Shown here: in pieces, positions 9,536-34,123 of the stretch
Position numbering within the stretch: position 1 is the first letter of the stretch
Layout: every line of letters starts with the position of its first letter
Source of the DNA: Solirubrobacterales bacterium
GTDB taxonomy: Bacteria; Actinomycetota; Thermoleophilia; Solirubrobacterales; 70-9
Reading direction: 5' to 3'
Assembly (NCBI GenBank): GCA_025964255.1
Contig: JAOPZF010000264.1
Coordinates: 1-42,571 of the forward strand
DNA length: 42,571 bases
The notes under the pieces: model-generated
The model's database searches: none
Seen by the model: the letters and a program-made list of their open reading frames with translations, nothing else
What the model was told of the DNA's origin: nothing
Translations under genes and position numbers: made by a program

Positions 9536-10330
9536 ATGTCAAGCAACGGGAATGCCACGTCTTCACCGCCGATCGTCGTGCAGCGCCACGGCGCGGTCGG
9601 CCTCGTCCGCTTCGCGCGGCCGGAGAAAAAGAACGCCCTGACGACCGAGCTTCTGACCTCCTTGGCGGGGGTGCTGGAGGAGCTCGACCGTGATCCCGAG
9701 GTGCGCGCCGCGGTGATCACCGGCGGGCCGAAGATCTTCGCCTCGGGCGCCGACGTGCGCGAGCTGCGCGACGTCGAGCCGGTCGCCTACGCGACCTCCG
9801 ACCGGGTCGCCTGCTGGAAGCGCCTCAACGCGATCGAGCTGCCGCTGGTCGCGGCGGTAGCCGGGATCGCGCTCGGCGGCGGCTGCGAGCTGGCGCTGCT
9901 CTGCGACCTCGTGGTCGCCGGCGACGACGCCGTCTTCGGACAGCCCGAGGTCGCCCTCGGCCTCCTCCCCGCCGCCGGTGGAACCCAGCGCTGGGCGCGG
10001 GCGGCGGGACGCTACCGGGCGGCCGAGGTGGTGCTGGCCGGGCGCAAGCTCGACGCGATCGAGATGCGCGACGCCGGCCTCGTGGCGACGGTGGTGCCTT
10101 CGGAGCGGGTCGAGGAGGCGGGACTGGCGCTGGCGACGAAGGTCGCGGCGGGCGCGCCGCTCGCGTTGCGCGCCTCCCGGGCCTCGGTCCGCGCCTCCGA
10201 GGAGCTGCCGCTCTCGGCCGCTCTGGACGCGGAGCGCGCGCGTCTCCTTATGTTGCTGTCGAGCGAGGACCACCGCGAGGGGATCGACGCCCTGCTCGAG
10301 CGGCGGCCGGCGAGGTTCGAGGGGCGATGA
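9536..10330 (+). CDS. Enoyl-CoA hydratase (crotonase)
   Basis: Hydrates 2-enoyl-CoA to 3-hydroxyacyl-CoA. The 264-residue protein has ASGADVRELRD near 69-79 and the oxyanion loop GIALGGGCELAL. Both catalytic glutamates are present: Glu118 in GGGCEL and Glu138 in GQPEVALG, followed by LLPAAGGTQRWAR. The first gene of a plus-strand operon, 23 nt downstream of operator site 2. The Shine-Dalgarno is weak. Its stop overlaps the next ATG by 4 nt. With the divergent acyl-CoA dehydrogenase, thiolase and hydroxyacyl-CoA dehydrogenase it completes a beta-oxidation set. Confidence 0.95.
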   Translation: MSSNGNATSSPPIVVQRHGAVGLVRFARPEKKNALTTELLTSLAGVLEELDRDPEVRAAVITGGPKIFASGADVRELRDVEPVAYATSDRVACWKRLNAIELPLVAAVAGIALGGGCELALLCDLVVAGDDAVFGQPEVALGLLPAAGGTQRWARAAGRYRAAEVVLAGRKLDAIEMRDAGLVATVVPSERVEEAGLALATKVAAGAPLALRASRASVRASEELPLSAALDAERARLLMLLSSEDHREGIDALLERRPARFEGR

Positions 10331-11013
10331 GCGTGCGGGTGGTGGGCCTCGACGCGGCGGAGCTCAAAGCTCTGCGGAAGGACCCGGAGTACCGGGGCGG
10401 GCCGGTGATCCTGGATGGGATTGGCGGGGGCGAGGATCCAGGGACCCCCTCACTCACGAACAGCGTGGAGGTTCGTTCGGGGGTCCCTGGATCCTCGCTC
10501 GTGGGCGCCGATGTGGCTTCGTTGCTCGCCGCGATCGAGCGACTGGGGAGTCCCGTTGTCTTTGTGGCGGCGGGGAGGCTCGGTGCCGGAGGGCTTGCGC
10601 TCGGCTGCGTTTGCGTGGCGACTTACGTTGGGGCGGACGCCGAGGTCGGAGCGATCGATCCGGCCGGGACGCTCGCCCTCGGGCTTGCCGGGCGACTCAC
10701 CGACCGCGTAGGGCCCGCGGCCGCTGCGCGGCTGCTGCTCGATTCGACACCTTCGTCCCAAACCTTAGACCTTGGTAACCCAGAGGGCGACAAAGGTCTA
10801 AGGGTTGCCGTCGGACTCGGCTTGGTGCGGGTTGCGGACGATCCGCTCGCGCACGCCCGGGCCCTCGCCGAGCGGCTCACGGACCCCGCGGGCAGGCTCC
10901 TCACCCGCTCGCTTGCCTTCGCCGCTCGCAGCACTCCCGCACAGGCAGCCGCCTACGACGCCGAACTTCTTGCCCTGCTCGACCAACGCGACGACCCGCA
11001 GACCGACCGATAG
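10327..11013 (+). CDS. Divergent crotonase-fold protein carrying two inserted palindromes
   Basis: A 228-residue protein with a recognisable crotonase middle: GSPVVFVAAGRLGAGGLALGC near 74-94, the oxyanion-hole segment, then a DAEVGAIDPAG stretch. The GGCEL glutamate is replaced by leucine/alanine residues, so canonical hydratase activity is doubtful. Two segments encoded by palindromic DNA (about residues 35-57 and 146-159) interrupt the fold where crotonases have none. Reading frame and context are kept: ATGA overlap with the hydratase upstream and E1 alpha 9 nt downstream. It may be a decaying paralogue or a noncatalytic partner subunit. Confidence 0.65.
   Translation: MSVRVVGLDAAELKALRKDPEYRGGPVILDGIGGGEDPGTPSLTNSVEVRSGVPGSSLVGADVASLLAAIERLGSPVVFVAAGRLGAGGLALGCVCVATYVGADAEVGAIDPAGTLALGLAGRLTDRVGPAAAARLLLDSTPSSQTLDLGNPEGDKGLRVAVGLGLVRVADDPLAHARALAERLTDPAGRLLTRSLAFAARSTPAQAAAYDAELLALLDQRDDPQTDR
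10431..10497. repeat. Palindromic insertion 1 inside the crotonase-like gene (19-bp perfect arms)
   Basis: Arms 10431-10449 (CGAGGATCCAGGGACCCCC) and 10479-10497 are exact reverse complements. In the 29-nt spacer, ACGAAC (10457-10462) and GTTCGT (10472-10477) can pair as an inner stem. The element lies in frame and encodes roughly EDPGTPSL to GVPGSSL. Such a perfect 19-bp inverted repeat inside a coding region is unusual and suggests an inserted palindromic element. Confidence 0.85.
10763..10803. repeat. Palindromic insertion 2 inside the crotonase-like gene (11-bp arms)
   Basis: CCTTAGACCTT (10763-10773) and AAGGTCTAAGG (10793-10803) are perfect reverse complements with a 19-nt loop. The flanking AA/TT extends the pairing after one bulged G. 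It is more AT-rich than the surrounding gene, which supports insertion. Unlike palindrome 1 in sequence, but in the same gene. Confidence 0.7.
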
Positions 11014-14230: not shown

Positions 14231-14334
14231 AGCGTTCGTCGCTTGTACCCCTATACGGCTACAAGCGACGAACGCCAGGTCCCGGCGCCTGAAGATGACG
14301 GGAGGAAGCGTGACGTTCCATGGGTCTTCGTCAC
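14231..14334 (+). repeat. Two-hairpin repeat element, copy A
   Basis: The 45-nt core (14231-14275) is a palindrome: a 16-bp stem GCGTTCGTCGCTTGTA paired with its complement around a 13-nt loop. A 59-nt tail follows (14276-14334), ending in a second stem, CGTGACG/CGTCACG, with a 13-nt loop. Copy B at 22247-22350 (opposite strand) matches the core at 44 of 45 positions and the tail without gaps, about three quarters identical. Both copies sit between convergent genes. Weaker similarity extends about 30 nt upstream of the core. Confidence 0.9.
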
Positions 14335-14370
14335 GGGACTGGGCGCCAGCTTCCCGGCGCCGACGAAAAA

Positions 14371-14454
14371 GCCGGCGCGCGGTCGGAGGAGAGAGTGGCC
14401 GCGCGCCGGCTGGGTGGCACCCGCCGGGCCCGGGGTATGGGCCCGGCGGGTGCC
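14371..14454 (-). terminator. Tandem hairpins downstream of the substrate-binding protein gene
   Basis: On the minus strand, 17 nt after the stop at 14472, a perfect 16-bp GC-rich stem forms from 14416-14431 (GGCACCCGCCGGGCCC) and 14439-14454 with a 7-nt loop. It is followed by a 10-bp stem (14371-14380/14401-14410). No U-run follows, as is usual in high-GC actinobacteria. Likely the terminator or 3'-stabilising structure of the Liv operon. Confidence 0.7.
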
Positions 14455-22246: not shown

Positions 22247-22350
22247 CGTGACGAAGGCTCCTGAAACGTCACGGTTCGTCCCGTCTCCTTCATGCCTCGG
22301 AATACGGCGTTCGTCGCTTGTAGCCGTATAGGGGGACAAGCGACGAACGC
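22247..22350 (-). repeat. Two-hairpin repeat element, copy B
   Basis: Read on the minus strand, the 45-nt palindromic core (22306-22350) differs from copy A at one position. The 59-nt tail (22247-22305) aligns to copy A without gaps and keeps the second CGTGACG/CGTCACG stem. It lies between the convergent ends of the gene ending at 22212 and the TetR gene ending at 22410, filling most of that intergenic space. Confidence 0.9.
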
Positions 22351-29833: not shown

Positions 29834-29876
29834 GATGGGCCGAAAACCAGTCAGATAGTCCGGTTTTCGGCCCATC
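29834..29876 (-). terminator. Hairpin terminator downstream of the crotonase gene
   Basis: Arms 29834-29848 (GATGGGCCGAAAACC) and 29862-29876 are a perfect 15-bp inverted repeat with a 13-nt loop, starting 10 nt after the crotonase stop at 29887 on the minus strand. There is no U-run. It separates the acyl-CoA dehydrogenase/crotonase unit from ribBA. Confidence 0.7.
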
Positions 29877-33363: not shown

Positions 33364-34123
33364 GGCTCCCAAGTTACACCGCGAGAGCGTCGATGAGGAG
33401 CGGCCGAGCTGGGGGGATCGGGCTCAGCCGAAGGTGAAAACGTAGGCCTCGACCCCGGGTGCGTCAAAGGTCACCTCGAAGGGTGGCGTCGCCGCCGCGG
33501 CCGGGGCGGCGGACCAGTTGGTAGAGGCGCGGGTCGCGCACCTCGCCCTCCCCCGCCGAGTCGACCTGCAGCGCCACGACCTCAGCGCGCCCGGGCGCGG
33601 GGTGATCCAGAACCGCGTCGAGATCTCGCCCGAGGCGCGACGCGCCTCTTCCACCCCGGCGAGGAGGTCATCTACGTCCTCCGAACGGTCCACTCGGCCA
33701 AGGGGCGGGTCGCGAACGCGAGACAGGCGAGTCGGATCAGAGCGCTGCGCGGCATCTGGGCAAACGACGGCGTGGGCACCCAAGTCCTTCTGGAGGAGTG
33801 CCGGCGCGAACGCGAGCTCGAGGAGCGCAAGGCCGAGGATCGCGGCGTCGGCCGTCTTTGACGGCTGGGCGCTACTGGCCTTCCTCGCGGACGAACCGGC
33901 AGCGGAGCGGATCGGATCGGAGTTGCTCGACGGTCAGCACGTCTCTCGAGGTGATCGATCCGATGCCTTGCGCCTCCAGGCGCGGTCGTCCTAACCCGCG
34001 GCCTGCCCCGGCGCGGTCGTCGTAAGCGGCGCTATAGGTGGGAAGGGTCGACCGCGCCTGGAGGACGGTCGGAAGGGTCGACCGCGCTGCGCGGGTCCTG
34101 GCGCCGCTCGGCGAATCGACCAT
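33364..34123. other. Gene-poor 760-nt region with decayed fragments
   Basis: No intact gene is convincing. It holds a minus-strand C-terminal scrap ending VEAYVFTFG with stop at 33424, a plus-strand stretch reading FHPGEEVIYVL (cupin-like) at about 33646-33678, a probable antitoxin/PIN toxin remnant, and inverted (33972-33986/34050-34064, 15 bp) and direct (GGAAGGGTCGACCGCGC at 34041 and 34071) repeats. Confidence 0.5.
33661..33994 (+). pseudogene. Probable VapBC-type toxin-antitoxin remnant
   Basis: A frame ending at TGA 33859-33861 reads VGTQVLLEECRRERELEERKAED, like the C-terminus of small actinobacterial antitoxins that precede PIN toxins, but no start codon is available. Overlapping it in another frame, AVFDGWALLAFLADEPAAERI (from about 33852) matches the first strand and helices of a PIN domain, including the first catalytic Asp (VFD). 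The toxin frame stops at 33994, far short of the usual 130 residues. Both parts appear truncated or frameshifted. Upstream material in the antitoxin frame looks cupin-like and may be a fused scrap. Confidence 0.45.

What the first reader, a model, noticed from the sequence alone, without database searches (positions are those of the whole stretch)
10431..10803. Two palindromes inserted in frame within one crotonase-like gene
A perfect 19-bp inverted repeat (10431-10449/10479-10497) and an 11-bp one (10763-10773/10793-10803) interrupt a crotonase fold at positions where the family has no extra residues. The frame is kept both times. This recalls the palindromic elements that insert into Rickettsia genes, but in a high-GC actinobacterium. 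The two palindromes differ in sequence, so two families or two events are needed.
Basis: partly seen in the sequence, partly recalled or inferred. Interest (0 to 1): 0.6.

Follow-up and report, generated by a model that had tools for sequence, protein, structure and literature searches.

The report
Self-matching hairpin repeats inside genes
A soil-type bacterium carries many copies of two families of short DNA hairpins, some sitting in frame inside working genes; the tip of each hairpin is conserved while its two arms change freely yet keep matching each other, which suggests that one arm is repeatedly copied onto the other.

Summary
Palindrome 1 (10430-10498) has perfect 20-bp arms around a 29-nt loop; palindrome 2 spans 10759-10807. 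Both lie in frame in a weak crotonase-like gene. They belong to two dispersed repeat families: family 1 has 65 model matches in this genome and occurs in 12 of 12 genomes of the genus; family 2 has at least 17 places here and occurs in 11 of 12. Family 1 has a conserved loop, but nearly every copy has its own stem: among 106 distinct copies there are 103 different left arms, yet 97.1% of 2014 stem cells are Watson-Crick, with only 14 G-T. Orthologous copies sit at the same site in conserved genes (MenD in five species, in frame; seven species lack it), with stems that differ but stay paired. Twice the loop is inverted in place. Arm matching plus loop inversion is the known footprint of replication template switching. 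The elements work like Rickettsia palindromic elements, but share neither their taxon nor a REP transposase (Y1_Tnp: 0 of 12 genomes), and unlike the Rickettsia elements as reported they keep matching arms. New variant of a known kind. How copies first spread is unknown; insertion into this particular gene is inferred, because no orthologue was found.

The parts
10327..11013 (+). host gene, weak crotonase-like protein of 228 aa, overlaps the stop of the crotonase gene 9536-10330
   Evidence: ORF; Pfam ECH_1 E = 0.014 at aa 59-140; GC3 0.76 against 0.92-0.96 for three neighbours
10430..10498 (+). family 1 palindromic element, 20-bp perfect arms
   Evidence: model R1 89.6 bits; 40 places by BLAST, 65 model matches
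10430..10449 (+). left arm of family 1 element (copy-specific sequence)
10450..10478 (+). conserved 29-nt loop; inner stem ACGAAC (10456-10461) with GTTCGT (10471-10476)
10479..10498 (+). right arm of family 1 element, exact complement of the left
10759..10807 (+). family 2 palindromic element
   Evidence: model R2 68.4 bits

Best explanation
Two families of short dispersed palindromic repeats, old residents of this Solirubrobacterales genus, lie mostly at gene ends and sometimes in frame in linkers or loops of proteins, where they appear to be translated. Shown by sequence: two families with many copies; a conserved loop with copy-specific but almost perfectly paired stems; inheritance at the same sites with stems changing on both arms together; two in-place loop inversions; frame kept. 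Inferred: the arms match because replication template switching at the hairpin copies one arm onto the other (homogenisation) and sometimes inverts the loop, so the stem drifts in sequence without losing pairing, and the loop is what identifies the element. Transposition by an unknown enzyme is assumed for the original spread and is not shown.
For: 65 model matches in the own genome, 12 of 12 genus genomes. 97.1% Watson-Crick cells over 106 copies with 103 distinct left arms and 14 G-T cells. A loop-only pattern with no demand on the stem gives 42 of 42 paired copies (at least 16 of 19). In seven gene-embedded orthologous sets, 92 of 108 changed stem cells differ on both arms, 21 expected if the arms were independent. 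MenD: 5 of 12 genomes with the element at one site in frame, 7 without. Loop inverted in place in a GH15-like ORF (L172 against L112, nearly the same arm) and in FbiC of G003. Arm homogenisation and spacer inversion are the published footprint of template switching (PMC8604942, PMC8794818, passages).
Against: Cmk-EngA: 6 of 10 changed cells are one-sided, so correction is not universal. The conserved loop is not explained by template switching alone. No template-switch event was observed in close strains; relatives are only about 65-70% alike in DNA. The two loop flips could instead be independent insertions in opposite orientation; in FbiC the arms also differ. Non-carrier G007 falls among the MenD carriers with weak support.
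Confidence: 0.68

Rival explanations
1. A structured RNA or a hairpin-binding element under selection: compensatory mutations keep the stem, and the loop is bound by a protein or RNA, for example at gene 3' ends as a terminator or mRNA stabiliser.
For: Very strong covariation; 34 of 55 own copies intergenic, of which 12 of 29 with both neighbours called lie between convergent genes and 4 between divergent ones (rough ORF caller); loop strongly conserved.
Against: G-U intermediates nearly absent (4 of 760 outer-stem cells; 14 of 2014); in-gene copies lie in both orientations to the gene, 8 sense to 6 antisense; loops invert in place; no Rfam match in the window at gathering cut-off and no credible family among 12 loci.
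Confidence: 0.18
2. REP-type elements moved by a RAYT or other IS200/IS605-type Y1 transposase.
For: Short palindromes, inverted pairs of elements (L034, L044, L141), frequent position at gene ends; a one-sided G-rich flank next to the stem (by eye; weak in the profile).
Against: Y1_Tnp (PF01797) found in 0 of 12 genus genomes while the control rings in 5 of 14 known genomes; stems of 19-22 bp and 29-nt loops exceed the reported REP ranges; stems are not conserved.
Confidence: 0.05
3. Translational bypass or RNA excision: the hairpin in genes is skipped by the ribosome or cut out, as for the untranslated hairpins of Magnusiomyces mitochondria.
For: Very stable hairpins within conserved genes.
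Against: Inserts keep frame: loop length class 13 of 13 inside genes against 20 of 42 elsewhere (13 of 14 against 20 of 41 with L048), and all 12 MenD regions are multiples of three. Skipping would not need this. Caveat: 'inside' was called from open ORFs, which partly builds in the result.
Confidence: 0.05
4. Assembly artefact of metagenome bins.
For: All carriers that the pattern scan named are metagenome-assembled.
Against: The same loops occur at orthologous sites in MAGs of several record series (70-9, SZAS-9/10/14), with different but paired stems.
Confidence: 0.02

Closest known systems
Rickettsia palindromic elements (RPE)
   Same: Palindromic repeat families, several per genome, many inserted in frame in unrelated genes with the product kept (PMC10969869, passage; PMC3733652, passage).
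   Different: RPEs are described as about 150 bp, each encoding a conserved peptide, and are reported to lose repeat identity with time (PMC6649704, passage). Here the hairpin is about 67-75 bp, arms stay matched, stems are private to each copy, and loops flip. Another phylum, high GC.
REP / BIME / GTAG and CGTC palindromic repeats
   Same: Short dispersed hairpins, often extragenic, sometimes inside genes, sometimes in inverted pairs (PMC3733652, passages).
   Different: REP stems 5-13 bp and loops 2-20 nt with a GTAG or CGTC tag; here 19-22 bp stems, 29-nt loop and no Y1 transposase in the genus.
Coding palindromes of Nematomorpha mitochondria
   Same: Near-perfect inverted repeats within coding genes, arms actively kept alike; template switching proposed by the authors (PMC6649704, abstract and passages).
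   Different: Those arms encode conserved protein regions and are not a dispersed repeat family; here inserts of a repeat family with a conserved loop.
Template-switch mutations at inverted repeats
   Same: Arm homogenisation and spacer inversion (PMC8604942, PMC8794818, passages).
   Different: Those are scattered events in yeast genes or rRNA stems; here one repeat family shows the footprint over about a hundred copies.

Membership tests
Rickettsia palindromic elements | Multi-copy palindromic repeat | tested here: met
   65 and at least 17 places in the own genome
Rickettsia palindromic elements | In-frame insertion in unrelated genes, orthologues without it | tested here: met
   MenD with and without; Pfam-supported hosts
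Rickettsia palindromic elements | Sequence relation to an RPE family | not tested
   no RPE sequence was compared; the loop pattern scan of species genomes returned only MAGs titled Solirubrobacterales or Actinomycetota
Rickettsia palindromic elements | Arms decay with age | tested here: not met
   arms stay matched while sequence changes
REP / RAYT system | Y1 tyrosine transposase in the genome | tested here: not met
   0 of 12 genus genomes
REP / RAYT system | Stem 5-13 bp, loop 2-20 nt, GTAG or CGTC tag | tested here: not met
   19-22 bp stem and 29-nt loop; no GTAG or CGTC tag seen in the flanks (by eye)
Rfam structured RNA | Match to a curated family | tested here: not met
   0 matches in the window; chance-level rows at the elements among 12 loci
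Template-switch maintained inverted repeat | Both arms change together, without intermediates | tested here: met
   92 of 108 changed cells; 14 G-T of 2014 cells; Cmk-EngA is an exception
Template-switch maintained inverted repeat | Spacer inversion with arms retained | tested here: met
   GH15-like ORF, L112 against L172; FbiC G003 against G000 and G006, where the arms also differ
Template-switch maintained inverted repeat | Events seen between very close strains | not testable with these tools
   genus members are about 65-70% alike in DNA over the operon genes compared

The most novel reading that the evidence does not exclude
The conserved loop is a recognition site: a host or element-encoded factor binds the extruded hairpin and drives copying of one arm onto the other (and perhaps new insertions), giving a self-repairing palindrome whose identity lies in its loop while its stem is free, even within conserved metabolic genes.
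Probability: 0.15. Interest if true: 0.85.

Novelty: new variant of a known kind. Interest (0 to 1): 0.62.

Why it matters
In-frame palindromic repeats are best known from Rickettsia. Here they occur in high-GC Solirubrobacterales, in at least two families, in conserved genes such as menD, the FbiC-type radical SAM gene and a cmk-engA fusion. The near-perfect but private stems form a natural experiment on template switching: about a hundred copies, with orthologues and empty sites, in coding and non-coding DNA. Such stems would also pass as very strong RNA covariation, so the case warns that two-sided changes alone do not prove a functional RNA; the lack of G-U intermediates and the loop flips are the tell-tale.

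Tried and rejected
Structure prediction was uninformative: host protein alone mean pLDDT 40.4, MenD of L125 with a 3-row alignment mean pLDDT 37.6; no fold search was run on either. That the MenD insert lies between domains rests on PDB sequence matches that stop before it and resume after it. The RAYT hypothesis was rejected. Viral origin: the loop pattern has 0 hits in viral contigs. Orthologues of the window's host gene were sought in 61 genomes without success and in operon neighbourhoods of relatives, where three loci read had an SDR-type gene in that place (named by eye from the translation, no family search) and others a different arrangement. Exact element ends and target duplications could not be fixed because relatives are only about 65-70% alike in DNA. 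The first alignment of family 2 was misregistered and was redone. L048 was dropped from the in-gene set for lack of Pfam support while L058, also without it, was kept; one search gives the test with L048 included and with the 10 Pfam-supported copies only. In one search, FbiC L071 and AlkZ-up L118 were misregistered and inflated the mismatches; one search leaves both out, and also leaves out the intergenic and L048 groups, using 7 of the 15 groups.

Full report
Observation. The window carries a perfect 20-bp inverted repeat around a 29-nt loop (10430-10498) and a second hairpin (10759-10807) in one open reading frame, 10327-11013. Hairpins of this length are not expected by chance: no arm above 14 bp in 20 shuffles. 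The host is a weak crotonase-like protein; its only Pfam match at E <= 1, ECH_1 at E = 0.014, spans aa 59-140, exactly between the two hairpins.

Two families. A DNA search with palindrome 1 gave 41 rows (40 places) in the own genome; all share a loop close to CTCACGAACWGCGKGGAGGTTCGYTC, while the arms differ. A covariance model from 40 copies finds 65 matches in the own genome and matches in 14 of 61 genomes: 12 of 12 of the genus, 2 of 25 other family members, 0 of 24 others of the order (copy numbers there are lower bounds). A loop-only scan of 84,980 species genomes returned 39 stretches, all in MAGs titled Solirubrobacterales or Actinomycetota; contig lengths tie G011 to 70-9, G006 to SZAS-10, G005 to SZAS-9, G008 to SZAS-14, G007 to SZAS-15 and G001 to MGR_bin420 (my reading). 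No viral contig matched. Palindrome 2 belongs to a second family: 17 distinct places among the listed own-genome rows, with matches in 11 of 12 genus genomes.

Private stems, conserved loop. In 40 aligned copies, 17 of 19 outer pairs show changes on both sides, 2 never vary, and G-U cells number 4. In 106 distinct copies from all loci there are 103 different left arms; of 2014 cells 1956 are Watson-Crick, 14 G-T, 20 A-C, 24 other. That set was filtered at 13 of 19 pairs; without a filter, 4 more of 110 rows appear, which read as misregistered copies. The loop-only set, gathered without any demand on the stem, is paired in 42 of 42 (at least 16 of 19, best of three registers). Family 2 shows the same pattern more weakly on 7 copies: 5 of 21 pairs with changes on both sides.

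Inheritance. tblastn of own ORFs near elements against relatives' loci shows elements at the same places in orthologous genes. In MenD the element sits in the linker before the C-terminal domain in G000, G005, G006, G008 and G011, in frame, and is absent in the seven others (linker position). A tree of MenD plus FbiC (two of 12 genomes lack FbiC in it) puts G001-G004, G009 and G010 in one clade (support 100) and leaves non-carrier G007 among the carriers with weak support: one gain and one loss, or more gains. In seven gene-embedded orthologous sets, 92 of 108 changed stem cells differ on both arms, against 21 expected if the arms were independent; Cmk-EngA is the exception, with 6 of 10 one-sided.

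Loop inversion and site reuse. In the FbiC linker, G000 and G006 carry the loop forward, G003 carries it inverted, G010 a variant loop, G002 and G009 a different palindrome with long matching arms, G001, G007 and G008 none, and G011 has masked bases there. In the GH15-like ORF, L112 and L172 share nearly the same arm around oppositely oriented loops.

Coding. Of 55 own copies placed with a rough ORF caller, 14 are inside ORFs, 7 overlap an edge and 34 are intergenic. Pfam hosts: CopC/CopD, GDSL lipase, hydantoinase A and B region (two copies), a UvrD-PDDEXK protein, MenD-like TPP enzyme, FbiC-type radical SAM, an FAD-binding protein, a Mur ligase, and a cmk-EngA fusion. The loop length class is compatible with frame in 13 of 13 in-gene copies and in 20 of 42 others (p = 0.0007); p = 0.004 with L048 counted inside, or with the 10 Pfam-supported copies only. 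Since 'inside' needs an open frame, this is partly ascertained. Orientation is 8 sense to 6 antisense over all 14.

Mechanism. Matching arms with almost no G-U intermediates, and in-place loop inversion, are the footprint described for replication template switching (PMC8604942 and PMC8794818, passages). I therefore read the elements as old dispersed palindromic repeats whose arms are homogenised by template switching and which are tolerated in frame in protein linkers. How they first spread is unknown; no Y1 transposase was found in the genus. The strong loop conservation, also in gene-embedded copies, is not explained by template switching alone, and is the ground for the bolder reading that the loop is recognised.

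Comparison. They work like Rickettsia palindromic elements (reviewed in PMC10969869, passage), but those are reported to lose repeat identity with age (PMC6649704, passage). REPs have 5-13 bp stems, 2-20 nt loops and, for GTAG types, a RAYT (PMC3733652, passages). Seven literature searches listed no report of such elements in Solirubrobacterales, judged from titles and abstract starts; the library lacks most subscription papers.

Noticed in passing
window 14232-14275 and 22307-22350: Two further hairpins with the same 16-nt left arm and oppositely oriented loops, about 8 kb apart; the second matches the family 2 model weakly (E = 0.012), so they may be a third, related family.
   Followed up: partly
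window 14370-14454, 29834-29876, 33973-34064: Other long perfect hairpins in the window, not assigned to a family.
   Followed up: no
L197 and L199 (FbiC of G002 and G009): A different palindrome with another loop sits in the FbiC linker where other species carry family 1: linker hot spot or loop replacement.
   Followed up: partly
L137:809-2977: Cytidylate kinase and EngA/Der GTPase are encoded as one ORF with a family 1 element in the linker.
   Followed up: no
L074, L075, L086, L087, L144-L146: Variant hairpins keep only the apical core around AACAGCGGGGAGG while even the inner stem changes, also in a second genus (L086 comes from G031).
   Followed up: no
L063:1482-1583 (G000 C257:6381-6482): Two family 2 copies lie head to tail about 54 bases apart.
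   Followed up: no
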